In this document: positions 2 through 54,449 of the stretch, in pieces
How the letters are laid out: every line of letters starts with the position of its first letter
How positions within the stretch are numbered: the stretch's first letter is position 1
Virus record (IMG/VR): IMGVR_UViG_3300025450_000020
Coordinates: 18,186-82,185 of that record
Length of the DNA: 64,000 nt
Origin: a virus
Direction: 5' to 3' (one strand)
The notes under the pieces: model-generated
Seen by the model: the letters and a program-made list of their open reading frames with translations, nothing else
Databases searched by the model: none
What the model was told of the DNA's origin: nothing
Made by a program: the position numbers and the translations under genes

Positions 2-1084
2 AAAAGTTATTCTTCTGACTCGGTAAGCGAAAATAATGCAACTCTTTCGTATGCCCAAATGCAAGCAACCTTATGGAGCTATACAGGCAATCCAGCCATT
101 ACAAGTATTTTAATTACTTTATCAAGCGGTAACTTTGCCCAATACTCCACCTTCTCTCTCTACGCCCTAGCCGCAGTAGGCACTACTCCTACTAAAGCTC
201 CGAAGGCATCAGGTGGAGATATTGTTCAATATGACGGTACATATTGGTATCATGCATTTATTAATTCGGGAAGTTTTATTCCACAGATCCCGCTTTCTTG
301 TGATGTGCTAGTCGTTGCTGGTGGTGGTTCGGGTGGCGCTGGAACTGGTGGCGGTGGTGGAGCTGGTGGTTTGCGTTTATTAGCTAGCCAAGGTTTTGCA
401 CCAAATACTGCTTACACTTGCACGACTGGCGCTGGCGCTGCTTCTGTTACTGGAAGCGCACACGGTAATAATGGAACTAACTCCAGCCTTATTGGAGGTT
501 CTATTTCTATCAGCGCAACTGGTGGTGGCGGTGGAGCTGCCGAAAATACGAACAACGCTCAAACAGGTGGTTCTGGTGGTGGCGGAAGCTACAACGGTTA
601 CAACGGAGCTGCTGGTAACGCTGGTTCATATTCGCCAGTTGAAGGTTATGCAGGTGGTGTTGCTTCCGCAACCTACAACGGCTCTGGTGGTGGTGGAGCT
701 GGTGGAACTGGTTTTGCATCAACAACATCAGGCTCTACTGGAGTTGGTGGTGTGGGCGGTGTAGGTGCTGGCGGAACTTCATACACTAATTACGCAATTC
801 TTGATGCTATGGGCGCGGCTACTACAACTGGCGTACTTTCGTCATCTCACTATTACTATGCAGGTGGCGGCGGTGGTGGTGGACAGTATTCAACTTCGCC
901 ATATACAGGACAAGGTGGAGCTGGCGGAACTGGTGGTGGCGGAACTGGCGGTGCTTACAATCCAGCAACCGCAGGAACCTCAGCACTTGCCAATACAGGC
1001 GGTGGCGGTGGCGGAGGCGGAACAAACTCAAACACCTCTGGAGCTGGCGGTTCAGGTGTAGTTATAGTACGCTATCTAGCTTAA
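2..1084 (+). CDS. Glycine-rich tail fibre/adhesin protein, 5'-truncated by window edge
   Basis: The frame is open from base 2 with no start, so the N-terminus lies upstream; the first ATG (59) is internal. The first ~60 residues match the end of the N-terminal module seen in the genes at 5414, 6799, 8864 and 10246 (called F-module here, ending in FSLYG-like). A linker with DGTYWYHAF follows, then LVVAGGG opens about 240 residues of Gly-rich sequence with GGGGGAGG blocks, ending GGSGVVIVRY. This type of Gly-rich C-terminal domain is common on phage tail proteins, and the polyglycine-helix adhesins (gp38 type) use such sequence to display receptor-binding loops. That role is inferred here. It is the first member of a tandem array. 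Confidence 0.8.
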   Translation, partial: KSYSSDSVSENNATLSYAQMQATLWSYTGNPAITSILITLSSGNFAQYSTFSLYALAAVGTTPTKAPKASGGDIVQYDGTYWYHAFINSGSFIPQIPLSCDVLVVAGGGSGGAGTGGGGGAGGLRLLASQGFAPNTAYTCTTGAGAASVTGSAHGNNGTNSSLIGGSISISATGGGGGAAENTNNAQTGGSGGGGSYNGYNGAAGNAGSYSPVEGYAGGVASATYNGSGGGGAGGTGFASTTSGSTGVGGVGGVGAGGTSYTNYAILDAMGAATTTGVLSSSHYYYAGGGGGGGQYSTSPYTGQGGAGGTGGGGTGGAYNPATAGTSALANTGGGGGGGGTNSNTSGAGGSGVVIVRYLA

Positions 1085-1111
1085 ATTAAAATATGATTAT
1101 ATTAATTAACT

Positions 1112-1120
1112 TGATATAAT
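1112..1120 (+). promoter_or_regulatory. Extended -10 promoter
   Basis: TGATATAAT matches the extended -10 consensus TGnTATAAT. It lies 15 bases before the ATG at 1136, which has its own AGGGAG ribosome site. No good -35 is visible. It probably drives the fibre array downstream. Confidence 0.5.
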
Positions 1121-1135
1121 TAGCAGGGAGATAAA

Positions 1136-2149
1136 ATGACAAAATCTAGAGATTTATCTAATTCGGGACGTAGCATTGGAACAACATCCAATCGTCCCGC
1201 TTCTCCCTTTGTTGGACAAGAGTATTATGATACAACTTTAGGTCAATTATTAAATTATACAGTTCAAGGAACTTGGGTTGCAGTTGGAACAGCTGCACCA
1301 AATGCAGTATCTGTAAACTATCTTGTAGTAGCAGGTGGCGGCGGTGGTGGTTACAACCGTGGTGGCGGAGGTGGAGCTGGTGGATTACGTTCAACCGTTA
1401 CTGCAACTGGAGGCGGAGGCTCTTTAGAATCAGCACTTCCTTTAACTATTGGCACTTCATACACAGTAACTGTAGGCGCAGGAGGTGCTGGAGCAATTCA
1501 AGTTTCTCCATATACACCAGCGCAAAATGGTTCTAACTCTGTATTAGCAACAGTTACTTCCACTGGAGGCGGCGCTGCTGGTGCTGGCACTACTGCTGGT
1601 TCTAACGGAGGCTCTGGAGGTGGCGGCGGTGGTAATGGTGCCCCAGGTGCTTCAACAGCATACGTTTCTGCTGGAACAGGAACAAACAATCAAGGTTATG
1701 CTGGAGGACAAGGCGCAAACTCTGGTGGCGGTGGCGGTGGTGCAGGTCAAGCAGGATATTCGGTATCTAGTCAAACAACAACAGTGGGCGCTAATGGAGG
1801 TAGCGGTGTAGCAGTTTCAATTACTGGTTCATCTGTAACCTATGCGGGCGGCGGAGCGGGCGGCGGAGAATCTGGCTCACCAACAGGTGGTTCAGGCGGC
1901 GGCGGAAATGGCGGAAACAATAACGGTACTAATTCTTATGGATCTGCTGGAACTGCTAATTTGGGTGGCGGTGGCGGCGGTGGTTCTGATGGTCAATCAA
2001 CAAACTATTATGGTGGAAATGGCGGCTCTGGAGTTGTTATTATTTCTGCACCTCAAGCTGCTGCATCTACAACAGGTTCACCAACTGTAACAACATCAGG
2101 TTCTAATACGATTTACAAATTCACTGGTTCAGGGAGTATAACCTTCTAA
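1136..2149 (+). CDS. Glycine-rich tail fibre protein (YYDTT N-terminal module)
   Basis: 337 residues. The N-terminal ~45 residues carry SNRPASPFVGQEYYDTT, a short module shared with the next gene and frequent at the N-terminus of phage fibre proteins (Y-module here). After LVVAGGGGGG the rest is Gly/Ser/Thr-rich with poly-Gly runs, ending in a tail around ITF rather than the IVRY motif of its paralogues. AGGGAG lies ahead of the start. The stop overlaps the next start (TAATG), so the pair is probably translationally coupled. The receptor-binding role is inferred from the array context. Confidence 0.75.
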   Translation: MTKSRDLSNSGRSIGTTSNRPASPFVGQEYYDTTLGQLLNYTVQGTWVAVGTAAPNAVSVNYLVVAGGGGGGYNRGGGGGAGGLRSTVTATGGGGSLESALPLTIGTSYTVTVGAGGAGAIQVSPYTPAQNGSNSVLATVTSTGGGAAGAGTTAGSNGGSGGGGGGNGAPGASTAYVSAGTGTNNQGYAGGQGANSGGGGGGAGQAGYSVSSQTTTVGANGGSGVAVSITGSSVTYAGGGAGGGESGSPTGGSGGGGNGGNNNGTNSYGSAGTANLGGGGGGGSDGQSTNYYGGNGGSGVVIISAPQAAASTTGSPTVTTSGSNTIYKFTGSGSITF

Positions 2150-3189
2150 TGTCTAACGCTAGAAATATTGCTAATAATGGGGGAGTTGGATCAACATCTA
2201 ACCGTCCCGCCAATCCATATGTAGGACAAGAATATTACGATACCACAGTTAATGCAATTGTGGTTTGGAATGGAACTACTTGGGGCGGATTATTTCCAGC
2301 TTTTTATCCAGTCGTTACTGGCGGCACTATTTTTTCAGATGCAACTTATTATTACCGTGCTTTTACTTCTACTGGTACTTTATCTGTTTCTAACGTAGCT
2401 TTAGCTGCCGATGTTTTAGTAATTGCTGGTGGCGCAAGCGGTGGTTATAACATAAATCAAGCCAATGGTGGTGGCGGAGCTGGTGGTCTTAGATTATTAG
2501 CTTCTCAATCATTGCCTGTTAACACTTATACTTGTTCAGTTGGTGCGGGTGGCGCTTCGGTTTCATCAAGTCCATCTATGGGTAATAACGGAACTAACTC
2601 ATACATTAGTGCAAGCGGTTTCTCTACTATTACCGCTTCAGGTGGTGGCGCAGGTGGTTACGGAACTACCAACAACGGTTTATCTGGTGGTTCAGGCGGT
2701 GGTGCTGGTTCTGGTGGACACAGTGGCGGAGCAGGAAACACTGGTGGTTATACCCCCGTTGAAGGATATGCGGGCGGTACATCTTCAGCAGTTCAAGCTG
2801 GTGGTGGTGGTGGTGGCGCAGGCGGAGTTGGCGGCAACGGTGGTTCAGGCGGCGGTGCATACGGCGGCAACGGTGGCGTAGGTGCTGGAGGAACTGGATA
2901 CACAAATTACGCAATTCTTGACACTATAGGTGCTGCAACATCAACAGGCGTTCTTTCATCTTCGCATTATTATTATGCAGGTGGTGGCGGAGCTTCTGCT
3001 GATAGCGGTTCAACTGGTGGACTTGGCGGTGGCGGCAATGGCCCTAGCGGTTCTGTTACATCAGCAAACGCAGGTTTAACTAATACAGGCGGCGGCGGTT
3101 CTGGTGCTTTTGGTAATTCAACACCATCGGGTGCTGGCGGTTCTGGTTTAATTGTTGTTCGTTACACTAGAACTCAGGTAGGTGGATAA
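2149..3189 (+). CDS. Glycine-rich tail fibre protein (YYDTT N-terminal module)
   Basis: 346 residues, paralogue of the preceding gene at its N-terminus (SNRPANPYVGQEYYDTT). Its C-terminal half is closest to the first gene of the window: both share GGAGGLRLLASQ, SPVEGYAGG or TPVEGYAGG, and YTNYAILD, ending with IVVRY. This gene therefore combines the Y-module with the Gly-rich module otherwise found behind F-modules, which is evidence of module swapping within the array. Start and stop both overlap neighbours by one base (TAATG). Confidence 0.75.
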   Translation: MSNARNIANNGGVGSTSNRPANPYVGQEYYDTTVNAIVVWNGTTWGGLFPAFYPVVTGGTIFSDATYYYRAFTSTGTLSVSNVALAADVLVIAGGASGGYNINQANGGGGAGGLRLLASQSLPVNTYTCSVGAGGASVSSSPSMGNNGTNSYISASGFSTITASGGGAGGYGTTNNGLSGGSGGGAGSGGHSGGAGNTGGYTPVEGYAGGTSSAVQAGGGGGGAGGVGGNGGSGGGAYGGNGGVGAGGTGYTNYAILDTIGAATSTGVLSSSHYYYAGGGGASADSGSTGGLGGGGNGPSGSVTSANAGLTNTGGGGSGAFGNSTPSGAGGSGLIVVRYTRTQVGG

Positions 3190-3617
3190 TGGCTATTAAT
3201 TTTCCTTCATCTCCAACAGTAAACCAACAATATACGTATAATGGTTTAACTTGGTATTGGACTGGACAAGTTTGGAAATCTCTAGGAACTGTTCAGGGCG
3301 TACAAGGCACACAGGGTGTGCAAGGTTTTGGATATGCCCAACTTCAAGGTGTTCAAGGACTTCAGGGTTCTGCAGGATATGTTGGAACAAATGGAGCACA
3401 GGGTACACAAGGTATATCAGGATTAACTGGTAATTATCAATCAATTCAGGGATCGGGAATTTCTGTTACAGCCCGCCCAGTTATAAACTTTTTAAATGCA
3501 ACAGTAACTGATGATTCTGCCAATAACCGAACAAATGTTACAATTGCAACAGCGATAGATGGCGGAAGTTCCAATAGTACATATGGAGGAGCCATAAGCG
3601 GAGGTAATGCAATATAA
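3189..3617 (+). CDS. Collagen-like tail fibre protein
   Basis: 142 residues. The N-terminus (FPSSPTVNQQYTYNGLTWYW) resembles the short head domains of phage fibres. Residues ~35-80 contain Gly-X-Y-like repeats built from VQG, TQG and LQG, as in phage collagen-like stalks that form trimeric rods. The C-terminal part (NFLNATVTDDSANNRTNVTI) is a common phage fibre motif. Likely a trimeric spacer or fibre. Coupled to both neighbours by TAATG overlaps. Confidence 0.65.
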   Translation: MAINFPSSPTVNQQYTYNGLTWYWTGQVWKSLGTVQGVQGTQGVQGFGYAQLQGVQGLQGSAGYVGTNGAQGTQGISGLTGNYQSIQGSGISVTARPVINFLNATVTDDSANNRTNVTIATAIDGGSSNSTYGGAISGGNAI

Positions 3618-4441
3618 TGGCAGTCTTACAGATTCAACTACGTCGTGACACAGCATCTAACTGGACCACTAACAACCCAACCCTTGCTCAGGGCGAGTTT
3701 GGATATGAGACTGATACTGGTTTGCTAAAACTTGGAAATGGCGGTACTGCCTGGAACTCCCTAGCATATTTTGGCGGTAGTTCAGGATATTCATCTACAG
3801 CTACAGCAGCAGGTACAACAACACTTACTGTTAATAGCAATTCAAATCAATTTTTTACAGGTTCTACAACCCAAACAGTTGTTTTGCCAGCTGTAAGTAC
3901 TTTGCCTTTAGGTAAGCAATATACAATTTATAATGCAAGTACAGGTGTTGTAACTGTTCAATCATCAGGTGCAAATACTATTTTTGCACAACCAGCAGGA
4001 ACTGCATTTACATATACAAGCATAGCAACATCTGGAACTGGAACATCTTCATGGTCAGCATATTATGACGGTAACTTTTCAGGAGTAACGGGAACGGGAG
4101 CAGAAGTTCTTGCTACAAACCCAGTACTTACTGGAACAACACTTACTGGTGCATATTCTGGAGCATATACCGATGGTGTAGTTGTAGATTATGTCACGGG
4201 TAATGGACGCATATCTGTAGGTACTGGCGATGGAGTAACTTTTTATAATAATACAGACAGCTCTCGTTCACAAATTTTTGGAATTAGCTCTACTGGAGGA
4301 TTAACAATTCTTGGTAGCGTAACGGCAAATAGCTCAACTGGAACTAGTGGACAAGTTCTTACATCAACTGGAACTGGTGTTCAATGGGCAGCAGTTGCAG
4401 CAGACCCTACACCTACAGTATTTATGTTAATGGGTGCATAA
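3617..4441 (+). CDS. Tail fibre protein with Mtd_N-like N-terminus
   Basis: 274 residues. Residues 5-55 (LQIQLRRDTASNW, LAQGEFGYETDTG, LKLGNGGTAWNSL) match the short N-terminal domain of major tropism determinant and many other fibres (Mtd_N type). The middle is a beta-rich stretch, and the C-terminus has TSTGTGVQW, typical of fibre tips that precede an oligomerisation segment. No reverse transcriptase or template repeat is visible, so there is no support for a diversity-generating retroelement. Function as a host-contact fibre is inferred. Confidence 0.65.
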   Translation: MAVLQIQLRRDTASNWTTNNPTLAQGEFGYETDTGLLKLGNGGTAWNSLAYFGGSSGYSSTATAAGTTTLTVNSNSNQFFTGSTTQTVVLPAVSTLPLGKQYTIYNASTGVVTVQSSGANTIFAQPAGTAFTYTSIATSGTGTSSWSAYYDGNFSGVTGTGAEVLATNPVLTGTTLTGAYSGAYTDGVVVDYVTGNGRISVGTGDGVTFYNNTDSSRSQIFGISSTGGLTILGSVTANSSTGTSGQVLTSTGTGVQWAAVAADPTPTVFMLMGA

Positions 4442-4472
4442 TGAATTTAAATTTTAGAAAAGGAGATAAATA

Positions 4473-4838
4473 ATGGCAACAGCATACAAGGTATTAGGCA
4501 TGACAGGTGCGGCTGGAGCAACAGGAAATGGTGCCCAGCAATTAGCAGCAGCAAATACAAACTATAATCTTTATACAGTACCTTCAGCAACATCTACTGT
4601 AGTTTCAACTATAACTGTTTGTAATCAAGCTTCAACTGCAGCTACATTTAATATATTGGTAAGACCTGCAGGTGCAACTGCAGATACCCGCCACTATATT
4701 GCATATGGTACACCAATTGCGGGGAATGACACAATAGCCCTCACATTAGGTATTACCCTAGCTACAACAGATGTAATTACAATCAATTCATCAACAACTA
4801 CTCTTTCATTTGCAGCATTTGGATCAGAGCTATCATAA
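4473..4838 (+). CDS. Small virion structural protein, probable beta-sandwich
   Basis: 121 residues, with AAAGGAG-type ribosome site 8 bases before ATG. The sequence alternates hydrophobic and Thr/Ala residues (NLYTVPSATSTVVSTITVCN, FNILVRPAGA), as in small beta-sandwich virion proteins that are common in environmental phages. No catalytic motif or membrane segment is seen. Its place within the fibre array suggests a tail or baseplate accessory protein; precise function unknown. Confidence 0.6.
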   Translation: MATAYKVLGMTGAAGATGNGAQQLAAANTNYNLYTVPSATSTVVSTITVCNQASTAATFNILVRPAGATADTRHYIAYGTPIAGNDTIALTLGITLATTDVITINSSTTTLSFAAFGSELS

Positions 4839-4849
4839 AGGAGTAATTA

Positions 4850-5413
4850 ATGTCAGTTAGTAGATTCTCCAGACAGAGTGTTCAAGCGGGTTTTCCAAAA
4901 CAGCAAAATGTTTGGGATGGGTTAACACAGCCGTCTGCTATGGATGCTTTAAGCGCTATTACCCTTGGTTCGTCTCAAAACAGCATCAACTTTAACAACA
5001 TACCGCAAACATACACCCATTTACAGTTGCGTGGAATTGTTCAAATCTCAAGCGGAGCAGCACAAATAACCTCTAACTTTAACAACGATTTTTCTTCCAG
5101 CTACTTTTGGCACGAGTTAGTGGGCGACGGTGGCAGTACTTCAGCAGGATATTCAGCAGACACATCTATGAGAACAGTCTATTGCAACTCATCAAGTAAC
5201 GTATACTCTGTTTTCATCATTGACATACTAGACTATTCAAATGTAAACAAAAATACAACACTAAGAACATTAACTGGGATAGATACAAACGGCGGTGGTC
5301 AAGTAAAGCTCTTGAGTGGTTTGTGGAATAACACTGCTGCTGTCACTTCCTTTACTATGGCAGGAGCCACGTTTATACAGTATTCTTCCTTTTCTTTGTA
5401 TGGGATTAAATAA
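4850..5413 (+). CDS. Tail adhesin-like protein, F-module only
   Basis: 187 residues. It contains the conserved motif NFNNIPQTYTHLQL and ends with FSSFSLYGIK, the two boundaries of the ~170-residue module found at the N-terminus of the genes at 5414, 6799, 8864 and 10246. Here the Gly-rich domain is missing and the gene stops right at the boundary. AAAGGAG precedes the ATG. It may be a stand-alone copy of the module or the product of loss of a Gly-rich domain. Confidence 0.65.
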   Translation: MSVSRFSRQSVQAGFPKQQNVWDGLTQPSAMDALSAITLGSSQNSINFNNIPQTYTHLQLRGIVQISSGAAQITSNFNNDFSSSYFWHELVGDGGSTSAGYSADTSMRTVYCNSSSNVYSVFIIDILDYSNVNKNTTLRTLTGIDTNGGGQVKLLSGLWNNTAAVTSFTMAGATFIQYSSFSLYGIK

Positions 5414-6799
5414 ATGGCTAATTATGTACCTTTACAGTCAGTATCATTAGCCAGTTCTGCAGCAAGTGTTACGTTTAACAACATTGACCAAACATACACG
5501 GATTTAATTTTGACTATCAACGCTTCCGTAGTTACTGGCAATGGTTACACGATTCGTTTTCAAGTAGGTAATGGAAGCATTGATAGTGGTGCAAACTACT
5601 CTTGGACACAACTTATTGGTGATGGCTCTTCAATATCTTCAGGACGTAACAGCTCCTCCAATCCGCAAAACCAGTACATGTATGGTGGCAGAGCTGATAA
5701 CCTTCCTAACTTTGGAACCACAACTGCACACTTTATGAGCTATACCAACCCGAACATCTACAAATCTGCTCTCATTAGAGGTGGAGTGGGAACCGTAAGA
5801 GGCGGAGTTACAGTGAATTTATGGCGTTCAACTTCTGCCATTAATACCATAACGGTGTCTAACGAAGCAGCAGTCAACTTTGCTGCAGGTTCTACTTTTT
5901 CTCTGTACGGTGTCAGTCCAGTGAACGCTAAAATCGCTCAAGCATCTGGCGGTACTAGCATCTATTACGACTCCTCGTATGTTTACCACGTGTTTGCTGG
6001 TACTGGAGTATTTGTTCCAAATAAAAACCTTACTGCTGACATTTTAGTTGTCGCTGGTGGTGGCGGAGGAGCTGGTGGTGGCGGTGGCGCAGGCGGATTA
6101 GTTGGTTCTGGTTCATACTCTCTTACTTCGGGAACAAGCTATTCTTGCATTGTAGGTGCAGGAGGCTCCTTGGGTGGTAACGGAAACAACATCGGTTCAA
6201 GCGGAACTAACTCTCAATTTGGGTCCATAACTGCCGCTGTTGGCGGCGGAGCTGGTGGAGTTAACGGGTCAACTGCCGTTGCTGGAGGCTCAGGTGGTGG
6301 AGCTGGACTAAACGGAGACTACAGCGGTCACCCAGGAGGAACTGGTACTGCTAATCAAGGTTACGCTGGTGGAACCGACTTGAACACTACCTACGTACCT
6401 GGTGGTGGTGGCGGTGGTGCTGGCGGATTAGGCGGTAACGCTATAAGTGGTGTTGGCGGAGGACTTGGCGGTGTTGGAGCTACGTACAACACTCTTATTG
6501 GGGGTACAGCAGGTCCTTACTCGTTTATTGACCCCATGGGTGCTGCAACTGGTTACGGACAACCTTCTTCTTCTCACTACTATTTTGCAGGTGGTGGAGG
6601 AGGTGGAAGCAATGGAGGAGCTTCCGCAGCAGGTGGGCTAGGAGGCGGAGGAACTGGCTACGGAGCTAGCAACGTCAACGGACTTCCTGGAACCACCAAC
6701 AGTGGAGGTGGAGGTGGAGGAGCTAATAACAATGGTTCAGGCCAAGGTTGGGGAGGCTCTGGAGGCTCTGGAGTTATTATTGTGAGGTATGCACGCTAA
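5414..6799 (+). CDS. Glycine-rich tail fibre/adhesin protein (F-module + Gly-rich)
   Basis: 461 residues. Residues ~1-170 form the F-module (VTFNNIDQTYTDLILTI to FSLYGV). A bridging segment YVYHVFAGTGVFVP follows, then ILVVAGGGGG starts a Gly-rich domain of about 250 residues ending GGSGVIIVRY. A small conserved block DPMGAAT plus SSSHYYFAGGGGGG lies inside the Gly-rich part and recurs in paralogues. The start codon follows the previous stop directly. Probably a receptor-binding or adhesion protein (inference). Confidence 0.75.
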   Translation: MANYVPLQSVSLASSAASVTFNNIDQTYTDLILTINASVVTGNGYTIRFQVGNGSIDSGANYSWTQLIGDGSSISSGRNSSSNPQNQYMYGGRADNLPNFGTTTAHFMSYTNPNIYKSALIRGGVGTVRGGVTVNLWRSTSAINTITVSNEAAVNFAAGSTFSLYGVSPVNAKIAQASGGTSIYYDSSYVYHVFAGTGVFVPNKNLTADILVVAGGGGGAGGGGGAGGLVGSGSYSLTSGTSYSCIVGAGGSLGGNGNNIGSSGTNSQFGSITAAVGGGAGGVNGSTAVAGGSGGGAGLNGDYSGHPGGTGTANQGYAGGTDLNTTYVPGGGGGGAGGLGGNAISGVGGGLGGVGATYNTLIGGTAGPYSFIDPMGAATGYGQPSSSHYYFAGGGGGGSNGGASAAGGLGGGGTGYGASNVNGLPGTTNSGGGGGGANNNGSGQGWGGSGGSGVIIVRYAR

Positions 6800-8181
6800 T
6801 GAACGAGACACTAACTAAGCTACAGACTATTACCGTTGGTTCTGGTGGTGCTTCATCCGTTACTTTTTCAAACATACCTCAAAACTACACAGATTTAGTC
6901 ATTAAGTATTCTGCTCGTTCAAACGGAACATCCAACTACTGTGATGGCTTTTTGCTAAGTTTAAATGGGATAAGCACTGGACAAACTGGGAATGCTCTTT
7001 ACCAATGGTGGGGCTCACATACTGCAAGTGACCCTTCATTTGAAGCGTATCTCGCTAACGCAAATACTACTGCGGGTACTTTTGGAAATGGAGAAATTTA
7101 TTTTTCAAACTACTCAGGTAGTAATTACAAAGCTTATTCTGCAGATTCAGTCACAGAAAATGGTGCAACATACAGCTTTAATGTACTATCAAGTGGGATT
7201 TGGGCAAACACCTCTCCAATTACCTCTATAACCTTAACTGTTTCCAATTCATTCCAACTTGTTCAGTATTCCACGCTTACTCTATACGGCGTAAAAAATA
7301 TGGCAACAGTACTTGGAAACTCTATTAAAGCTACTGGTGGAACTATTACAACAGATGGTACTTATGTTTACCACACGTTTTTATCTACTGCCACATTTCA
7401 ACCTACTACAAAACTTGTAGCAGACGCTCTAGTTATTGGTGGTGGCGGAGGAGTAGAAAACAGCGCACGTTTTGGTGGCGGAGGTGGTGCTGGTGGCCTT
7501 GTTTATCTGCCTTTTAGTACTTTTACTTCAGGAACATCTTATGTTTGCACTATAGGTGCTGGAGGAGCAACTAGTTCTACAATCTCTGCTACAAACGGAA
7601 CATACTCTCAAATCGGCTCCTTGTTACAGGCTGCAGGAGGAGGCGGAGGCTCCACTGTAGGTGTTGGTCAAAATGGAGGTTCTGGTGGCGGTGGTGCTCA
7701 GGGGTCTGCTGGAGGCTCCGCTTCCCCAGCAGGACAAGGAAATGCTGGTGGAGCTGGTTGGTCAAGCACAAACAGAACTGGTGGAGCAGGCGGTGGCGCA
7801 GGCGCAGTAGGTGGAGCAGCAACTGCTAGTTATGGTGGCGCTGGTGGAAATGGCTCCTCTGCATATAGCACATGGGGTTACGCAACTAACACGGGACAAA
7901 ACGTAAATGGTGTCTATTACTATGCTGGTGGCGGAGGTGGCTCTGCTTACGAGTACAGCGATTCTCCTGGAGCTGTTATAGACGCAGGCGGCGGCGGATA
8001 CGGTGGCGGCGGAAAAGGCGCCTATTACAGAACGGATTCTGGAGGAAACCCCACATCTAATGCTATTGCAGGAACTGCGAACACTGGAGGTGGTGGCGGA
8101 GGAAATGCTTGGGGAGGCGCAAACGGTGCCGCTGGATCTGCTGGTGGTTCTGGACTTATCATTGTTCGTTATAAGGCTTAA
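6799..8181 (+). CDS. Glycine-rich tail fibre/adhesin protein (F-module + Gly-rich)
   Basis: 460 residues from the ATG at 6799, which overlaps the upstream stop (TAATG). An in-frame start 51 bases earlier would lie inside the previous gene and has no ribosome site. F-module: VTFSNIPQNYTDLVIKYSAR to YSTLTLYGV. Then YVYHTFLSTATFQP leads into LVIGGGGG and a Gly-rich domain of ~245 residues ending GGSGLIIVRY. The inner block WGYATNTGQNVNGVYYYAGG is shared with the gene at 10246 but differs from the DAMG type, so at least two Gly-domain subtypes exist. Confidence 0.75.
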   Translation: MNETLTKLQTITVGSGGASSVTFSNIPQNYTDLVIKYSARSNGTSNYCDGFLLSLNGISTGQTGNALYQWWGSHTASDPSFEAYLANANTTAGTFGNGEIYFSNYSGSNYKAYSADSVTENGATYSFNVLSSGIWANTSPITSITLTVSNSFQLVQYSTLTLYGVKNMATVLGNSIKATGGTITTDGTYVYHTFLSTATFQPTTKLVADALVIGGGGGVENSARFGGGGGAGGLVYLPFSTFTSGTSYVCTIGAGGATSSTISATNGTYSQIGSLLQAAGGGGGSTVGVGQNGGSGGGGAQGSAGGSASPAGQGNAGGAGWSSTNRTGGAGGGAGAVGGAATASYGGAGGNGSSAYSTWGYATNTGQNVNGVYYYAGGGGGSAYEYSDSPGAVIDAGGGGYGGGGKGAYYRTDSGGNPTSNAIAGTANTGGGGGGNAWGGANGAAGSAGGSGLIIVRYKA

Positions 8182-8206
8182 TATAATTAAAATGGTAAAA
8201 TTAAAG

Positions 8207-8222
8207 GGCGGGAGGTAGAAAA
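8207..8222 (+). promoter_or_regulatory. Ribosome site overlapping a GGCGGGA motif
   Basis: GGCGGGAGGTAG sits before the ATG at 8223. The strong Shine-Dalgarno GGGAGGT is fused to one copy of the dispersed 7-mer GGCGGGA. TATAAT at 8182-8187 could be a -10 for this short leader. Confidence 0.45.
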
Positions 8223-8864
8223 ATGTCATTTAAACATCTAAATGGTGCAGGTATATATGGATCTAAGTCTTTAAAGCTATGGGATCAAACTACCGTACAG
8301 AACGATTTTCAGTCTATTGCTACTGTTGTAGTTCCTGCTGCTGGTCAAGCAAACATTACGTTTAGCAATATTCCGCAAAACTTTACACACTTGCATCTAC
8401 GCATCAGTGCACGAAGTGATAACGCATCTGGTACAGATGCTTGTTCTATTTATATGCAGCTAGGTAACGCTGGAACTATTGACTCTTCAGGGAGTCACTA
8501 CTCTCAACATCAATACACTGCATATACGGGCGCAGGAAATGGCTGGCAAGCGGGTGGCTCTGGAAGCTTAAACGCTTCATATATTGGACTTGCAACTTCT
8601 GCTGGGCAAGGGGCAAACATTTTTGGAGCCAATATAATTGATATTTTAGACTACTCAAACACTAGCAAATTTAAAACTATGCGCTCTCAATTTGGAGTAG
8701 AAACAAATAGCTCTAGTTATTGGAATTACACAGGCGTAGATACAGGCTCTTGGCAAAGCAATAATGCAATTACCGACATCAAGCTTTATCTTAATGACGG
8801 CTCTGCAAGAAACTTTACTCAGTATTCCCAAGTAGCTTTGTACGGAATAAAGGTATCTTCATAA
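8223..8864 (+). CDS. Tail adhesin-like protein, F-module only
   Basis: 213 residues. After a ~35-residue N-terminal extension (FKHLNGAGIYGSKSLKLWDQ) it contains ITFSNIPQNFTHLHLRISAR and ends YSQVALYGIKVSS, the F-module boundaries. No Gly-rich domain follows. It is the second stand-alone F-module in the array, after the gene at 4850. It is preceded by a strong GGGAGG ribosome site and its stop overlaps the next start. Confidence 0.65.
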   Translation: MSFKHLNGAGIYGSKSLKLWDQTTVQNDFQSIATVVVPAAGQANITFSNIPQNFTHLHLRISARSDNASGTDACSIYMQLGNAGTIDSSGSHYSQHQYTAYTGAGNGWQAGGSGSLNASYIGLATSAGQGANIFGANIIDILDYSNTSKFKTMRSQFGVETNSSSYWNYTGVDTGSWQSNNAITDIKLYLNDGSARNFTQYSQVALYGIKVSS

Positions 8865-10246
8865 TGGCTGGTCAAAGCGCATCCACATATAATTTTATTG
8901 CTAACCAAACTTTGGCTTCAGCAACTGCCTCAGTAACATTTAGCAATATTCCGCAGAACTTTACTGACCTAGTGCTTGTAGCAGCACACAATGAAAACGC
9001 TAGTGGCGCTGGTGGATATATGCAATTTAACGGCGATACGGCAACTAACTACAGCTCTAACTATGGGTATGGCAGTGGAAGCGGTACTGGACAAGGACGA
9101 GGTAATAGCCAAACTTTTTTCAGCTTTTCTTACGATACTAATACAACTTATCTAGCGCCTCAAATTTTGCACATAATGAATTACTCAAGCAGCAATATGT
9201 ACAAAACAATTATAGAAACTCAAATGAGTAGTGCGTCTACTCAGACAAGTCCCCAAACAGCGTTATGGAGAGGCTTGAACCCAATAACTAGCATATACAT
9301 GTATGCTGGTACAGGTAGCTTTATTGCTGGTTCTTCTTTTACTCTTTATGGAATTAAAGCCGCAGATGTAGCGTCCATTATTCCTACAAAAGCTATTGGT
9401 GGAGACCTTATTACCTCTGATGGTACTTATACTTATCATGCTTTTAAATCAACAGGTAATTTTATTCCCGCACAAGCACTTACTTGCGATATTTTGATGA
9501 TTGCTGGTGGTGGCGGTGGCGGACCAACTTATGTTGGTGGCGGCGGCGGTGCTGGTGGATTGCGCCTTTTAACTTCTCAAAGTTTTTCTACTAGCCAAAC
9601 AGTTACTATCGGTGCTGGGGGTACTGGCGGAAGTGGTTATGGCAACCAAGGAACAAATGGTGGAACTTCATCACTAGGTTCTATTTCTGCATCTGGTGGT
9701 GGCGCAGGTTCTACAAATGATGGAACTAATCCTAAAGCGGCGGCATCTGGAGGTTCTGGCGGTGGAGCAAACTACACAACTTTAACTGCTGGTTCAGGTA
9801 ACGCTGGCTCATATTCTCCAGTTGAAGGTTACGCTGGAGGTACTGCTTTTAACGGTGGCGCTTATGGCTCAGGTGGCGGTGGCGGCGCGGGTGGAGCAGG
9901 TAATGCTGGAACAACATCTATCGGCGGTGCTGGTGGTGTAGGTGCTGGCGGAACTGGTTATACAAATTATGCAATTTTGAATGCAATGGGTACAGCAACA
10001 TCTACTGGAGTTTTATCATCTGGTAATTATTATTATGCAGGCGGTGGTGGCGGTTCTTCTTATGGCGCTGGCGGTGGTTCAACTTCATCTGGTGGTTTAG
10101 GTGGAGGTGGAACTGGCTCAACAGGTCAAGGAGGAAATGCCACATCTAATACTGGTGGCGGTGGCGGTGGTTCAGAGCGAGCAAGTGGCGCTTTGGCGGG
10201 CGGCAATGGCGGTTCAGGAATTGTTATTGTGAGGTATTTATCCTAA
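8864..10246 (+). CDS. Glycine-rich tail fibre/adhesin protein (F-module + Gly-rich)
   Basis: 460 residues. F-module from VTFSNIPQNFTDLVLVAAHN to FTLYGIKAAD. Bridge TYTYHAFKSTGNFIP, then ILMIAGGGGGG and a Gly-rich domain with GGAGGLRLLTSQ, SPVEGYAGG, YTNYAILNAMG and GNYYYAGGGGGS, ending GGSGIVIVRY. The Gly domain belongs to the same subtype as the genes at 2 and 2149. Coupled upstream and downstream by TAATG overlaps. Confidence 0.75.
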   Translation: MAGQSASTYNFIANQTLASATASVTFSNIPQNFTDLVLVAAHNENASGAGGYMQFNGDTATNYSSNYGYGSGSGTGQGRGNSQTFFSFSYDTNTTYLAPQILHIMNYSSSNMYKTIIETQMSSASTQTSPQTALWRGLNPITSIYMYAGTGSFIAGSSFTLYGIKAADVASIIPTKAIGGDLITSDGTYTYHAFKSTGNFIPAQALTCDILMIAGGGGGGPTYVGGGGGAGGLRLLTSQSFSTSQTVTIGAGGTGGSGYGNQGTNGGTSSLGSISASGGGAGSTNDGTNPKAAASGGSGGGANYTTLTAGSGNAGSYSPVEGYAGGTAFNGGAYGSGGGGGAGGAGNAGTTSIGGAGGVGAGGTGYTNYAILNAMGTATSTGVLSSGNYYYAGGGGGSSYGAGGGSTSSGGLGGGGTGSTGQGGNATSNTGGGGGGSERASGALAGGNGGSGIVIVRYLS

Positions 10247-11610
10247 TGGCTAAAACATACTCTGCTATTCAGACTATTACACTGTCTGCAACTACATCGT
10301 CTGTTACTTTTGCAAATATCCCTCAAAACTATACAGATTTACGACTTCTTGTTAGCGCACGTACTACAGACTCAAATACTGTTAGCTCTACCGCTATGCG
10401 TGTAGGTAACGGTAACGTTGATGCTGGAGCAAACTACACGCAAAAAGACGTACAGTATGCAAACGGCTCTGCTTCTTCTGGTAATACTAGCGGAACCAAC
10501 CAATGGTATTTTGTTCACGATGCGGCAAGTAACACATCGGGAATATTTGGAAATGCAGAAATTTACATACCTAGCTACACCAATGGAATACAAAAATCTG
10601 CTCAATTAAACAGTGTAACTGAGGACAACTCTAGCACCAGCATACAAAGCAGAACAACCTCTGCATTATGGACTGGAACGTCTGCAATTAATATTATTAC
10701 ACTTACTGGAAGCGGTACCAGTTATGCGGCTGGTTCTACTTTTACTCTTTACGGTATTGGTCAAGGAGCTAAAGCTACTGGTGGAACTGTAGTGGGTGCT
10801 GGTAACTATATTTATCATACCTTTACTTCTTCTGGAACATTTACACCAACAGAGTATATTAAGAACGCAGAAGTTCTTGTTATCGCTGGTGGTGGTGGCG
10901 GAGGTTCTCAGGATGGAGCTGGAGCTGGAGCTGGTGGAGTGCTATACGCCCCACCAAATTACCCGTTTAATGCAGGAACAAACTACGGAATTACAGTAGG
11001 AGCTGGTGGCGCTGGAGGTACTTCTAGCGGAGCTGGTTCACAAGGAAACAACTCAGTTGTAAATGCGCTTGTATCCATTGGTGGCGGTGGTGGTGCTGGA
11101 AGAAACACTGTAGGAACTACAGGAGGTTCTGGCGCTGGTGGAAATACAAACGGTGGCTCTCAAGGACCTACGTCTGCACTACAAGCTAGCGTTGGTGGAG
11201 GAATAGGTTATGGTAATGCGGGTGGAGCTAGTGGTAACTCTGGTAGCGGCGCTTCTGGTGGTGGCGGAGGTGCTGGTGCAGCAGGTGGCGCTGGAGTAGG
11301 AGCCACACCTAAAGGTGGAGACGGCGGAATTGGATTAACAACCTGGTCAAGCTGGGGCTACGCCACGGGAACAGGACAAAACATTGGTGGAACTTACTAC
11401 TACGCAGGTGGCGGTGGCGGCGGGGCCGAGCCTACTGGCTCTCAAACTCAAGGTGTTGGTGGTTATGGTGGCGGAGGAACAGCAACTGCCTCTGGCACGG
11501 GTGGAAGTGGGACATCCAATACTGGCGGTGGAGGCGGAGCAGCCTCTGCAAGTGCGGCTGGTGGAGCTGGTGGTTCTGGTTTAGTAATCATTCGTTACCC
11601 AGTTAACTAA
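10246..11610 (+). CDS. Glycine-rich tail fibre/adhesin protein (F-module + Gly-rich)
   Basis: 454 residues, last member of the array. F-module from VTFANIPQNYTDLRLLVSAR to FTLYGIGQGA. Bridge YIYHTFTSSGTFTP, then VLVIAGGGGGGS and a Gly-rich domain with WGYATGTGQNIGGTYYYAGG, like the gene at 6799, ending GGSGLVIIRY. Its pairing with the 6799 subtype suggests duplication of whole genes as well as module exchange. Confidence 0.75.
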   Translation: MAKTYSAIQTITLSATTSSVTFANIPQNYTDLRLLVSARTTDSNTVSSTAMRVGNGNVDAGANYTQKDVQYANGSASSGNTSGTNQWYFVHDAASNTSGIFGNAEIYIPSYTNGIQKSAQLNSVTEDNSSTSIQSRTTSALWTGTSAINIITLTGSGTSYAAGSTFTLYGIGQGAKATGGTVVGAGNYIYHTFTSSGTFTPTEYIKNAEVLVIAGGGGGGSQDGAGAGAGGVLYAPPNYPFNAGTNYGITVGAGGAGGTSSGAGSQGNNSVVNALVSIGGGGGAGRNTVGTTGGSGAGGNTNGGSQGPTSALQASVGGGIGYGNAGGASGNSGSGASGGGGGAGAAGGAGVGATPKGGDGGIGLTTWSSWGYATGTGQNIGGTYYYAGGGGGGAEPTGSQTQGVGGYGGGGTATASGTGGSGTSNTGGGGGAASASAAGGAGGSGLVIIRYPVN

Positions 11611-15703: not shown

Positions 15704-17281
15704 ATGGCTAATTTAAGAATTGATGACAGTATTGATGAAGATGAGGGTGGGATCACAGTAAAGCTGGATGCCCCATCACATACTATAGAGCACGATTTTG
15801 GTGACCCGTTTAATGCAACTTGGTCAGATATTAAGAAGGCAGATGGCCTAAGTCCTAATTTCCGTCGTCAAGTAAATAGAATGGAAAAGTCATTTACTGG
15901 TGTTGGTGATGCAAAGTCTAAGAAGTTAGATCCGCTTGACCTTACAGGATATTCTCTTTTCCAGATTGTTCAACCTCCTTACAACGTACTATATTTGGCA
16001 CAGCTTTATGATATCTCCCCATATCATCACTCTGCTGTAAATGCTAAAGCTGCCAACGTTGTCGGGCTCGGTTATAAATTTGAAAACACATGGGCAACAA
16101 CTGCAAAGATTGAAGAAGTAATGGATCAGCCTAAAAAGCTTGACAAGTTGCGTTCAAAGCTTGAAGGCCTTAAAGAAGAGATGCGGGAGTTCCTAGAATC
16201 TCTTAACTCTGATGATTCATTTACAGAGACAATGAAAAAGATCTTCATTGACCTAGAATCAACAGGAAATGCTTATCTTGAAGTTGGTCGTACATCAACT
16301 GGTAAGATTGGCTACATTGGTCATATTCCTACAACAACAATGCGTATTCGCCGTCACCGTGACGGATTTGTTCAAGTTGTTTATAACCGCTACACATTTT
16401 TTAGAAACTTCGGTGATACCGAGACCCCAGATCAGATAGGTACTGATCCCCAGCCAAACGAAGTAATTCACTTTAAAGTATTTACTCCGTCAAATACCTA
16501 CTATGGCATTCCAGATGTTTTGTCTGCTAAGAATGCAGTTGCTGGTGATGAATTCGCACAGCGATTTAACTTGGACTACTTTGAAAACAAAGCTGTGCCT
16601 CGTTACATTATTACCGTAAAGGGAGCAAAGCTTACAGCAGAATCAGAGCGTAAGTTACTAGAGTTCTTCCAGACGGGGCTTAAAGGAAGAAATCACAGAA
16701 CCCTTTATATCCCTCTTCCATCAGATGGCGAGCAAGGTCGTGTTGAGTTTAACATGGAGCCAATTGAAGCGGGAATTCAAGATTCTTCGTTTAGGAACTA
16801 TGCGGTAGAAAACAGAGATCGTATTCTTTTGTCTCACCGTGTTCCAGTATCAAAGCTTGGAATGCCTGCAAACGTTTCGTTGGCTAATGCTAAAGATGCT
16901 GACAAGACATTTAAAGAGCAAGTATGTCGTCCACGTCAAGAAGAACTTGAGTTTAAGATTAATTTAATTATCAAGGAATTTACTGATGCGTTCAAACTTC
17001 AATTTAACGAACTTGCACTTACAGATGAAGAGACTCAATCTCGTATTGATGACCGTTATCTGAAGGATCAAGTTATTACTCCTAACGAAGTTCGTGCACG
17101 TCGTGGAATGGCTCCACTTGAAGGCGGTGATGCAGTGTTGGTTATTAATCCTAAAGCAGCACAAGATGCAGCATCAGATGCAAGTGGTAATAAAGCCAGA
17201 AGCCAAGACCGTGTTTTAAATGCACCTGATAAAATGGGCACGGGTCGTGCTCCAAAGGGTGAGGGAAGACAACAGGCATAA
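15704..17281 (+). CDS. Portal protein
   Basis: 525 residues, the normal size for HK97/PBSX-type portals. Telling segments are LYDISPYHHSAVNAKAANVV (near residue 105), FIDLESTGNAYLEV (~185), MRIRRHRDG, and VIHFKVFTPSNTYYGIPDVL (~255-275), followed by NLDYFENKAVPRY and LLSHRVPVSKLG. The portal forms the dodecameric ring at the packaging vertex and binds terminase. The ribosome site is weak, so coupling to the gene at 15350 is likely. Terminase lies 43 kb away in this window rather than beside it. Confidence 0.9.
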   Translation: MANLRIDDSIDEDEGGITVKLDAPSHTIEHDFGDPFNATWSDIKKADGLSPNFRRQVNRMEKSFTGVGDAKSKKLDPLDLTGYSLFQIVQPPYNVLYLAQLYDISPYHHSAVNAKAANVVGLGYKFENTWATTAKIEEVMDQPKKLDKLRSKLEGLKEEMREFLESLNSDDSFTETMKKIFIDLESTGNAYLEVGRTSTGKIGYIGHIPTTTMRIRRHRDGFVQVVYNRYTFFRNFGDTETPDQIGTDPQPNEVIHFKVFTPSNTYYGIPDVLSAKNAVAGDEFAQRFNLDYFENKAVPRYIITVKGAKLTAESERKLLEFFQTGLKGRNHRTLYIPLPSDGEQGRVEFNMEPIEAGIQDSSFRNYAVENRDRILLSHRVPVSKLGMPANVSLANAKDADKTFKEQVCRPRQEELEFKINLIIKEFTDAFKLQFNELALTDEETQSRIDDRYLKDQVITPNEVRARRGMAPLEGGDAVLVINPKAAQDAASDASGNKARSQDRVLNAPDKMGTGRAPKGEGRQQA

Positions 17282-17284
17282 CAA

Positions 17285-18148
17285 ATGTCTACAGCATTAG
17301 ACGTTTTAAATGTTGCTAGAAGTCAAATAGGTTTTGTTGAAGGACCAGTAAATGAAAACCCATATGGAATTTGGTATGGGGTTCCAAATGCAAGTTATTG
17401 TGCTATGGGTATAAGTTGGTGCTTTGCACAAGTTGGACTTTCATCTTTAGTTGCAGCACAAACTCCAAAAGGTTTTGCATATTGCCCTGCAGGTCTTGCA
17501 TGGTTTCAAAGACAAGGTTTAGTTGTAAATAAATATCAAGCACAACCAGGTGACCTTGTTTTCTTTTCATGGGGTACTGGTGTTGCAGAGCATGTTGAAA
17601 TTGTTGAAGCTGCATCTGCAGACGGATTAACAACAATTGGTTTCAATACAACTGATAAAAATACAAAAGAAGCAGCAAATGGCGGAGGGTGCTACAGAGA
17701 ACACCGTCCATATCTTTATGTTATGGCAATTGTAAGACCTAAGTATCCAGTGCCTCTAAAACCTGTTTCAAAGGGTGTTACAAGTAAAAAAGCTACGGCA
17801 GGTGTAGCAGCTACTGGAACAGCCGCAGCAGGCGTTGCAGCAGCTTTACATGGCACTCCAATCACAACCTCGGGAACAACACCAACACCCACTCCATCAC
17901 CTACAGTATTTGTAGCACCACCTTTTCCTACTAGTGCAACAGCTTTTAATTTAGGGCAAAAAAGTGATGCTGTTATGGCTGTAGAAAAAGCACTGTTAAA
18001 GGCGGGACTGCTTCCAAGTAACTATGTAACTGGAATAATGAATAAACAAACACAAGCGGCATTAGTAAAGTATGAGGCAAAGCAAGGAATTAAAGTTACA
18101 GGTACGCTGCCACAAATTATATATGATGAATTAAAGGGATCACTATGA
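17285..18148 (+). CDS. Endolysin: CHAP-like amidase/peptidase with peptidoglycan-binding domain
   Basis: 287 residues. Residues 1-150 form a CHAP-like domain with probable catalytic Cys39 (NASYCAMGISW) and His103 (VAEHVEIVE). An Ala/Gly then Pro/Thr-rich linker spans ~170-220. Residues ~223-285 (LGQKSDAVMAVEKALLKAGL, TQAALVKYEAKQGI) are a PG_binding_1-like repeat. It should cleave peptidoglycan stem peptides or cross-bridges at lysis. No signal peptide, so export needs a holin; the next gene overlaps it by 4 bases and is a holin candidate. Its position between portal and protease is unusual. Confidence 0.85.
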   Translation: MSTALDVLNVARSQIGFVEGPVNENPYGIWYGVPNASYCAMGISWCFAQVGLSSLVAAQTPKGFAYCPAGLAWFQRQGLVVNKYQAQPGDLVFFSWGTGVAEHVEIVEAASADGLTTIGFNTTDKNTKEAANGGGCYREHRPYLYVMAIVRPKYPVPLKPVSKGVTSKKATAGVAATGTAAAGVAAALHGTPITTSGTTPTPTPSPTVFVAPPFPTSATAFNLGQKSDAVMAVEKALLKAGLLPSNYVTGIMNKQTQAALVKYEAKQGIKVTGTLPQIIYDELKGSL

Positions 18149-18480
18149 GCCTAAAACACCATTTTAAGTTCAGTGTTGCAGATGCTAAACAGCTAGGTAT
18201 AGCCTTTGTAGGTGCAATTTCAGCCTGGGCAGCCACGGGATTTCAGAGGGATATAGCCCATCTAATGTATCCAATTGTTGGTTTTATAACAGGAGGCCTG
18301 GCATCCCACAACTCTATGGCTAACCCAAATGTCACTCCAGACTCACACATAGTAACTCCTTATGTCTCTAACATAGAAGATCACAATCCTGGGGTTCCTA
18401 CCCCAGTTGAACAAAACTATAAACCAGAGGGGGCGGATGTCAAAAAAGTCATCCAAATCAATAGCGGAATTATAAAATAA
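18145..18480 (+). CDS. Holin candidate
   Basis: 111 residues, start overlapping the endolysin stop (ATGA). Two short hydrophobic segments are visible: residues ~16-33 (LGIAFVGAISAWAATGF) and ~41-55 (LMYPIVGFITGGLAS), followed by a polar, proline-containing tail of ~50 residues. Two membrane segments beside an endolysin fit a holin, but length and topology are not diagnostic of a particular family. A second small membrane protein is encoded at 44951. Confidence 0.55.
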   Translation: MSLKHHFKFSVADAKQLGIAFVGAISAWAATGFQRDIAHLMYPIVGFITGGLASHNSMANPNVTPDSHIVTPYVSNIEDHNPGVPTPVEQNYKPEGADVKKVIQINSGIIK

Positions 18481-18513
18481 TTTTTACCGAAATTATGACT
18501 TATTTATAAAACT

Positions 18514-18522
18514 TGCTATTAT
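18514..18522 (+). promoter_or_regulatory. Extended -10 promoter for capsid protease
   Basis: TGCTATTAT lies 10 bases upstream of the ATG at 18533, with no Shine-Dalgarno in between, suggesting a leaderless or very short-leader transcript. Confidence 0.45.
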
Positions 18523-18532
18523 TTATTTACAT

Positions 18533-19996: not shown

Positions 19997-19997
19997 A

Positions 19998-53293: not shown

Positions 53294-53548
53294 ATGGCTC
53301 AGTCCTACATACTTAAAGGTACGGAGAACGAGTTCCTGTTAGTAATTAGAGCAGAGGACGAAAAAGCAATCTATAACATAATAGATTTATTAGTGACCAG
53401 TCGTAATGAACAGATTAAAGAGTTAGCAATAGAGTTAGAGAAGAGTTTACATGATAACGGAAGAGATTCTAGCAAAGCTAGACCCAAAAACAAGAGCAAG
53501 ACTACAACTAGCAACAACAGTAAGCGTAGAAAAACAAAAGACGCCTAG
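53294..53548 (+). CDS. Small protein overlapping recA
   Basis: 84 residues. Residues 1-55 (QSYILKGTENEFLLVIRAED, then EKAIYNIIDLLVTSRN) form a compact alpha-beta pattern; the last ~30 are Lys/Arg/Ser-rich (GRDSSKARPKNKSKTTTSN). The last 98 bases are also the first 32 codons of recA in another frame, so the basic tail may be free to vary. It lies behind a leaderless promoter. Function unknown, perhaps a recombination accessory. Confidence 0.55.
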   Translation: MAQSYILKGTENEFLLVIRAEDEKAIYNIIDLLVTSRNEQIKELAIELEKSLHDNGRDSSKARPKNKSKTTTSNNSKRRKTKDA

Positions 53549-54449
53549 CATTGGCTTAACAATGGGACTCAAAGGCGGATTAGGCTTTGGTCGCCAAATC
53601 CTTATCTGGGGAAATAAGTCTGCTGGTAAATCTTCATTCTGCTTACAAATGATTGGTCAAGCTCAAAAAGAAGGCAAGACTTGTGCTTGGATTGATGCAG
53701 AAGCATCGTATGACCCAGCTTGGGCTGCCAGATTAGGCGTAGATTCAGAAAAGCTAATTTATTCACCCGCTAAATCTATCAATGACATGGTAGATGTTGC
53801 ACAGCAACTTATGGAGGCGGGAGTAGATATTATTGTTGTAGATTCTATCTCAGCATTACTTCCTGCCATTTACTTTGAGAAAGATAGTTCCGATCTAAAG
53901 AAATTGGAAGATACCAAGCAGATTGGTGCTGAAGCAAAGGATATGACACATGCAGTCAAAATGCTTAACTATGCAAACAAAAATACGCTACTCGTTCTTA
54001 TCTCTCAACAGAGAAACCAGTTTGGATCTATGCATGCAAGCCATATCCCAACAGGAGGAATGGCTGTTAAGTTTTTCTCCAGCACCGTTATCAAGCTCTG
54101 GGCATCAGAAGCTGATGCAAATGCTATTAAGTCTGGAATCCAAGTTGGTGACAAAATTATTGAACAAAAGGTGGGAAGGCCAGTCAACTGGATTATTGAC
54201 TACAACAAAACTGGACCAATGGGGTTATCGGGTCAGTATGACTTCTATTTTCAAGGCGATAAAGTTGGAGTTGATGCTGTCGGAGAAATCCTAGATACTG
54301 CAGAAATGATGGGTATTGTGCAAAAAGGCGGTGCTTGGTACACTGTTAATGAAGAAAGATTCCAGGGTCGTGCAAAGGCTGTAGAGTACCTTAGAGACAA
54401 CCCTAAAGTAGCGGATAAGATTAAGGAAGAGATATATGACAAGTCTTGA
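53451..54449 (+). CDS. recA: RecA-like recombinase
   Basis: 332 residues. The start at 53451 is supported by DPKTRARLQLATTVSVEK, which is typical of the helical N-terminus of phage RecA. Walker A GNKSAGKSS (54-62), WIDAEASYDPAW (~78-89), Walker B DIIVVDSISALLP (~125-137), and the L2-like region QQRNQFGSMHASHIPTGGMA. It should form filaments on ssDNA for strand exchange and recombination-dependent replication. It overlaps the previous gene by 98 bases and the next by 14. Confidence 0.85.
   Translation: MITEEILAKLDPKTRARLQLATTVSVEKQKTPSIGLTMGLKGGLGFGRQILIWGNKSAGKSSFCLQMIGQAQKEGKTCAWIDAEASYDPAWAARLGVDSEKLIYSPAKSINDMVDVAQQLMEAGVDIIVVDSISALLPAIYFEKDSSDLKKLEDTKQIGAEAKDMTHAVKMLNYANKNTLLVLISQQRNQFGSMHASHIPTGGMAVKFFSSTVIKLWASEADANAIKSGIQVGDKIIEQKVGRPVNWIIDYNKTGPMGLSGQYDFYFQGDKVGVDAVGEILDTAEMMGIVQKGGAWYTVNEERFQGRAKAVEYLRDNPKVADKIKEEIYDKS

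What the first reader, a model, noticed from the sequence alone, without database searches (positions are those of the whole stretch)
2..11610. Combinatorial array of adhesin genes made from a few modules
At least nine adjacent genes mix three parts: an F-module (SNIPQNYTDL...FSLYG), a Y-module (VGQEYYDTT) and a Gly-rich C-domain in two subtypes (YTNYAILD and WGYATxTGQN). Combinations seen are F+Gly, Y+Gly and F alone. The gene at 2149 has the Y-module on the Gly subtype found behind F-modules. GGTGGC-rich DNA would promote recombination between copies. Gly-rich domains of the gp38 type display receptor loops, so the array could be a reservoir for host-range change.
Basis: partly seen in the sequence, partly recalled or inferred. 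Interest (0 to 1): 0.66.

Follow-up and report, generated by a model that had tools for sequence, protein, structure and literature searches.

The report
Three-gene phage adhesin units, swapped cassettes
A freshwater virus of bacteria carries three copies of a strictly ordered three-gene set for what are probably its cell-grabbing proteins, and close relatives, and even a virus with a different kind of tail, carry the same set with individual pieces exchanged at fixed joints, which suggests how such viruses change the hosts they can recognise.

Summary
The array is not a free mixture. It is three tandem copies of an ordered three-gene unit, F1-F2-F3, plus two Y+Gly genes. F1, F2 and F3 are separate paralogue groups. 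In 112 non-redundant viral loci found by one short motif, 69 of 89 complete F clusters read exactly (F1-F2-F3) once, twice or three times. The Gly domain occurs only on F2 and F3, never on F1 (0 of 127). The same triad lies in a published hypervariable island of two cultured Planktophila phages.

Recombination is shown directly. Contigs with 97-99% identical backbones differ by whole F or Gly cassettes (57-60% nt identity). The joints are conserved and slot-specific: gene start, a post-F linker, and the last ~45 nt. F and Gly exchange independently. One F3 cassette is shared at 99.8% with a contractile-tailed phage that has almost no other related gene in the 13 kb examined.

Recent exchange is allelic between phages. 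No recent exchange between the nine genes inside GGTGGC-rich DNA was seen.

The Gly domain models as the polyglycine domain of Bxb1 and Pam3 tail proteins. F is a lectin-like beta-sandwich. Adhesin function and a heterotrimer are inferred.

The parts
2..1084 (+). Triad 1, F3+Gly (3' part; the gene starts upstream at record 17839). The other members of triad 1 (F1 at record 15753-16364, F2+Gly at 16472-17842) lie outside the window
1136..2149 (+). Y+Gly gene a
2149..3189 (+). Y+Gly gene b; its Gly groups with Gly domains found behind F modules
3189..3617 (+). Short collagen-like protein (interrupts the array)
   Evidence: Pfam Collagen 7e-5, below cut-off; PHROG tail fibre hits
3617..4441 (+). 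Protein with Mtd_N (tropism determinant N-terminal) domain
   Evidence: Pfam PF18454 E 7e-15; a similar-looking protein precedes the single triad in a relative (L194)
4473..4838 (+). Small protein preceding triad 2 (a similar-looking 102-aa ORF precedes triad 1)
4850..5413 (+). Triad 2, F1 (F only, N-terminal leader)
5414..6799 (+). Triad 2, F2+Gly
6799..8181 (+). Triad 2, F3+Gly (ATG overlapping the previous stop; the open frame extends upstream to 6748)
8223..8864 (+). Triad 3, F1 (F only, leader); relative L015 keeps the first ~125 nt at 96% and has a different F core
   Evidence: AlphaFold model pLDDT 81.8
8864..10246 (+). Triad 3, F2+Gly; in L014 the F cassette is different and the Gly cassette is 100% identical
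9347..9502 (+). Seam (linker) of slot T3F2; DNA shared with L014 starts at 9321
10246..11610 (+). Triad 3, F3+Gly; F and Gly both replaced in L014 and L015; L094 (partial gene) has L014's Gly behind another F
   Evidence: AlphaFold model pLDDT 80.8
10246..10283 (+). 5' seam of slot T3F3 (shared DNA with L014 ends at 10283)
10750..10884 (+). Linker seam of slot T3F3 (78-93% among otherwise unlike alleles)
11569..11610 (+). 3' seam of slot T3F3; 97-99% identical flank resumes here in L014, L094 and L015 (11557 in L015)
53451..54449 (+). RecA-family recombinase of the phage: candidate machinery for the exchange
   Evidence: Pfam RecA E 9e-37; role inferred

Best explanation
The locus encodes the phage's receptor-binding (adhesin) set, built from a conserved three-gene unit F1-F2-F3 present three times. 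Shown: F1, F2 and F3 are three distinct paralogue groups in fixed order, closely spaced, with an N-terminal leader on F1 and an optional C-terminal polyglycine domain on F2 and F3 only. In each slot the F and Gly cassettes are flanked by slot-specific conserved seams, and relatives carry different cassettes between the same seams, each exchanged on its own, also between phages with non-contractile and contractile tails. Inferred: homologous recombination between co-infecting phages at the seams, possibly with the phage RecA, swaps cassettes and so changes receptor specificity. The three F proteins probably assemble together as a heterotrimer, with F1 as anchor and F2/F3 carrying the tips. The strict 1:1:1 gene order with exchange only within a position fits subunits that must keep a matching interface.
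For: Cassette exchange: G000/L014 slot T3F2: linker 99%, Gly 100%, F 57%. L014/L094 slot T3F3: Gly 99%, F different. L015/L093 slot T3F3: F 100%, Gly 59%. Flanks of G000, L014, L094 and L015 are 97-99% identical and the block edges fall at the seams. Same-slot against cross-slot medians: lead 70/49, linker 79.5/57, tail 81/62, but F 59/56 and Gly 60/59. Linker-tail Mantel r = 0.65 against F-Gly r = -0.04. Other backbone groups show similar edges. L093 is a myovirus (sheath, T4-like tube) with almost no other homologue of G000 in 12.9 kb; its F3 cassette is 99.8% identical to L015's. A further F cassette is 100% identical between L215 and L307 with unlike neighbours. Triad: two label changes on the F tree against 16.4 when shuffled. 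60 single, 8 double and 1 triple F1-F2-F3 among 89 complete clusters of loci not used for training. Gly on F1 0/127, F2 17/125, F3 24/127 (Fisher p = 7e-7 on the first set). Median intergenic gap 1 and -0.5 nt. Adhesin role: Gly model matches Bxb1 tail tip (Z 15.9) and Pam3 fibre (Z 15.4). The triad lies in the published possible host-recognition island of two cultured phages and is 100% nt identical in these two isolates from the same host strain, while flanks range from 82 to 100%.
Against: No protein of the triad has been shown in a virion or bound to a cell. The F fold match to lectins is weak (Z 7-8), a common beta-sandwich level. Heterotrimer formation was not tested (no multimer prediction available). 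Seven complete clusters are F2-F3 and seven are single F. All exchange evidence comes from metagenome assemblies, and L014, L015 and L094 are short contigs. The link to RecA is by presence only.
Confidence: 0.7

Rival explanations
1. One reading: recombination between the nine tandem copies, promoted by GGTGGC-rich DNA, reshuffles modules inside one genome.
For: Gly domains of F2, F3 and Y genes are intermixed on the Gly tree, so Gly has changed N-terminal partner in the past. A 31-codon mini-gene (lead plus 3' end of an F gene, core missing) lies between F1 and F2 of triad 1, as unequal recombination would leave.
Against: No two slots share a cassette above 62% (F) or 66% (Gly) nt among 129 cross-slot pairs; recent exchanges are all within one slot. 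F keeps its triad position.
Confidence: 0.12
2. Assembly artefact: contigs of co-occurring strains were joined at conserved seams.
For: All relatives are metagenome contigs. L014 begins inside F1, where it is near-identical to L093; the same phage as L093 was assembled from L014's own sample (L092).
Against: The array of the window is identical over 17.5 kb in an independently assembled record (L090). L092 and L093 are independent and 98.8% identical. Alleles differ in the seams themselves (78-93%), so exact-repeat joining does not explain them. Similar edges recur in unrelated backbone groups.
Confidence: 0.06
3. Cassettes diverge in place by fast mutation or a diversity-generating retroelement; no exchange.
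For: A tropism-determinant Mtd_N domain lies in the array. Cassettes are highly divergent.
Against: One cassette is 99-100% identical while its neighbour is 57-60%. No reverse transcriptase, resolvase or integrase in the record and no inverted repeats of 18 nt or more in the array.
Confidence: 0.03
4. The F/Gly proteins are capsid decorations or environment-binding (for example mucus-binding) proteins rather than receptor adhesins.
For: Position next to head genes; lectin-like fold; no virion data.
Against: Collagen-like fibre and Mtd_N neighbours; Gly domain is the tail-tip/fibre polyglycine fold; hypervariable island interpreted as host recognition in cultured phages.
Confidence: 0.15

Closest known systems
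Planktophila phages LanE43-AprE7 and -AprF5, second hypervariable island (Kavagutti et al. 2023, PMC10202952)
   Same: Two Gly-domain genes followed by F1-F2-F3 in the same order. [quoted passage not shown] I infer these are the same genes.
   Different: One triad, Gly as separate genes, different phage family. The paper does not describe the three as one ordered unit or the cassette seams.
T-even phage gp37/gp38 adhesin locus with swaps between conserved glycine-rich motifs (Tetart et al. 1998, from memory; title seen only as a cited reference)
   Same: Works alike: conserved motifs serve as joints for exchanging specificity cassettes.
   Different: Different protein families. Here there are many slots per genome and two independently exchanged cassettes per gene, each with its own slot-specific seams.
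Phage polyglycine domains: mycobacteriophage Bxb1 tail tip (9d93) and cyanophage Pam3 fibre (7ypx, 7yfw)
   Same: Predicted fold of the Gly domain: Z 15.9 and 15.4 over about 185 residues, 28-29% identity.
   Different: I know of no description there as interchangeable C-terminal cassettes on a triad.
Mycobacteriophage Mysterious gp35/gp36/gp37 heterotrimer (PMC13252515)
   Same: Three consecutively numbered gene products whose beta-sandwich domains form a heterotrimer on the tail: a precedent for the proposed assembly.
   Different: No sequence relation found to F (E7 and F5 were the only hits among 50,697 phage records); no cassette exchange described in the passages read.

Membership tests
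Gly_rich_2 / phage polyglycine domain | Match to Pfam PF21722 above its cut-off | tested here: met
   43.6-73.8 bits against a cut-off of 24.3 for the five Gly-bearing copies scanned
Gly_rich_2 / phage polyglycine domain | Polyglycine-helix fold of solved phage tail proteins | tested here: met
   AlphaFold model of the gene at 10246; Bxb1 Z 15.9, Pam3 Z 15.4, well above the next rows at 8.5. Predicted, not solved
T-even gp38 adhesin | Match to the Pfam gp38 adhesin family | tested here: not met
   Pfam scan at E up to 0.1 returned only Gly_rich_2 for the Gly-bearing proteins
T-even gp38 adhesin | Specificity segments exchanged between conserved glycine-rich motifs | tested here: inconclusive
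   Whole Gly cassettes are exchanged between a linker and a Gly-rich 3' tail; segment-wise exchange inside the domain was not examined in detail
F1-F2-F3 triad (defined here; also in phages E7/F5) | Three consecutive F genes of three paralogue groups in fixed order | tested here: met
   Three units in G000; 69 of 89 complete clusters elsewhere
F1-F2-F3 triad (defined here; also in phages E7/F5) | Products form one hetero-oligomer | not testable with these tools
   No multimer prediction or biochemistry available
Diversity-generating retroelement (Mtd-type tropism switching) | Reverse transcriptase in the genome | tested here: not met
   PF00078 gives no match in the 82 kb record; the record may be incomplete
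Invertible / site-specific recombination cassette | Serine or tyrosine recombinase and inverted repeats at the locus | tested here: not met
   the record may be incomplete

The most novel reading that the evidence does not exclude
Many aquatic phages of different tail types share one standardised heterotrimeric adhesin, F1-F2-F3, whose subunits and tip domains are interchangeable parts moving through a common gene pool. Because each position and each domain exchanges separately, three triads with about five exchangeable cassettes each give a phage population a very large combinatorial set of receptor-binding heads.
Probability: 0.45. Interest if true: 0.8.

Novelty: new variant of a known kind. 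Interest (0 to 1): 0.64.

Why it matters
Exchange of adhesin parts between phages is known, but mostly for one or two tail-fibre genes within one phage group. Here the exchangeable unit is defined exactly: three paralogue groups in fixed order, two cassette types, known joints, in many environmental phages, and identical cassettes in phages with different tails. It makes testable whether phages of abundant uncultured freshwater bacteria (Nanopelagicales for E7/F5) share one pool of receptor-binding parts, and whether three unlike subunits form one receptor head. It could also let host range be read from cassette content in metagenomes.

Tried and rejected
DGR, invertase and integrase: no family match and no inverted repeats. 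Named relatives of the F+Gly protein: no match among phages at 1e-5 (low-complexity filter is on); F alone matched only E7 and F5. Solved relatives of F by sequence: none. F fold: best VIA-align rows are GH32 lectin-like domains, galectins and ERGIC-53 at Z 6-8, near background, so no family is claimed. Scanning for the F2 cassette of triad 2 found only the same phage and one distant relative. A-1(L) 'heterotrimeric' parts are baseplate wedges, not adhesins. Two F domains outside triads (L187 fused, L163) were first labelled F1 in the tree; removed in the second tree.
Full report
What is there. The window is bases 18186-82185 of an 82,185-nt virus record. Its portal is closest among named phages to Streptomyces phages such as Wakanda and Annadreamy (about 54% aa), and no tail-sheath family was found in the record, so it is most likely a phage with a long non-contractile tail. 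The array runs from record 15753 to 29795, from 2.4 kb upstream of the window to window 11610. In order: triad 1 (F1, F2+Gly, F3+Gly), two Y+Gly genes, a collagen-like, an Mtd_N and a small gene, triad 2 (F1, F2+Gly, F3+Gly), triad 3 (F1, F2+Gly, F3+Gly). A collagen-like 1132-aa fibre gene precedes it and a LamG-type protein and the portal follow.

The triad. F domains trimmed of their leaders fall into three groups by position: two label changes on the tree, the minimum, against 16.4 when shuffled; support for F3 is 93-100% and for F1 84%, while F2 is not shown to be one clade but is not rejected. I then built one HMM per position and applied them to loci fetched only by a motif for IPQ[NT]YTDL. 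After removing near-duplicates, 112 loci held 89 complete clusters: 60 read F1-F2-F3, 8 read it twice, 1 three times; 75 of 89 have a size divisible by three. Genes in a triad mostly overlap by a base or lie a few bases apart, F1 has a median of 31 residues before the F domain against 9 and 7, and Gly occurs on F2 (17/125) and F3 (24/127), never on F1 (0/127). Other records that carry F hold three copies (one holds a fourth, fused); the window's holds nine. The same triad, with two separate Gly genes before it, is in cultured phages E7 and F5 of Ca. Planktophila, inside what their authors called a hypervariable island.

Cassette exchange. Contigs L014, L094 and L015 match the record at 97-99% downstream of the array, and the match stops at window 11557-11569, 41-53 nt before the end of the last gene. 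In L014 the match returns for the Gly half of the gene before it (window 9321-10283), with a different F half. L094 has L014's Gly cassette behind another F. L015 shares its F3 cassette at 100% with L093 but not the Gly. Segment by segment, seams are slot-specific (lead 70 against 49%, linker 79.5 against 57%, tail 81 against 62%, same-slot against cross-slot medians) while cassettes carry almost no slot signal (F 59 against 56, Gly 60 against 59). Linker and tail distances correlate (r = 0.65, p = 0.0002); F and Gly distances do not (r = -0.04, p = 0.65). Other backbone groups (L097/L098; L034/L036; L148-L158) show breaks at similar points. A mini-gene of 31 codons with an F lead and F end but no core lies between F1 and F2 of triad 1.

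Between unlike phages. L092 and L093, independent contigs 98.8% identical over 3.8 kb, encode tail sheath, T4-like tube and T4-like baseplate proteins and have no other clear homologue of the record's genes in the 12.9 kb examined (one weak 80-residue hit to the collagen-like gene). Yet L093 shares an F3 cassette (99.8% over 435 nt) with L015 and an F1 part (96.8% over 222 nt) with L014. Another F cassette is 100% identical in L215 and L307 with unlike neighbours.

Structure. The F+Gly model (pLDDT 81) matches polyglycine domains of Bxb1 and Pam3 tail proteins. F is a beta-sandwich (pLDDT 82) common in predicted proteins of uncultured Caudoviricetes; its lectin resemblance is at background level.

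Mechanism. Shown: exchange of whole cassettes within slots at conserved seams, independently for F and Gly, within and between phage groups. Inferred: homologous recombination in co-infected cells, possibly with the phage RecA; adhesin function; hetero-oligomer of F1, F2 and F3, for which a mycobacteriophage heterotrimer of three consecutively numbered gene products is a precedent. The identity of the triads of E7 and F5 (100% nt over 1.5 kb, with flanks ranging from 82 to 100%), both isolated on one host strain, fits a role in host recognition but is a single pair.

Limits. Relatives are metagenome contigs. The host of the window's phage is unknown; only E7 and F5 have a known host. Tetart et al. 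1998 is cited from memory.

Noticed in passing
L009:16364-16462 (record coordinates, upstream of the window): A 31-codon mini-gene with the start and the LYGIR end of an F gene but no core: an emptied slot left by recombination or deletion.
   Followed up: partly
window 3617-4441: Mtd_N (major tropism determinant N-terminal) domain in a phage without a detected reverse transcriptase; a similar-looking protein precedes the triad in L194.
   Followed up: partly
L056:2180-3253 and L071:3392-4462: Y+Gly genes share a Gly cassette (89% nt) with unlike neighbours on both sides: Y genes appear to exchange too.
   Followed up: no
window 40458-42113: 551-aa putative tail protein with a cysteine-rich stretch, unusual for a phage fibre.
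   Followed up: no
window 57836-59139: Adjacent genes that look like a glycosyltransferase and a sugar nucleotidyltransferase.
   Followed up: no
window 62327-63818: Nine tRNA genes near the record's end.
   Followed up: no
window 46536-57109: Own replication and recombination set: DnaB-like helicase, primase, DNA polymerase III alpha, RecA, Cas4-like exonuclease.
   Followed up: partly
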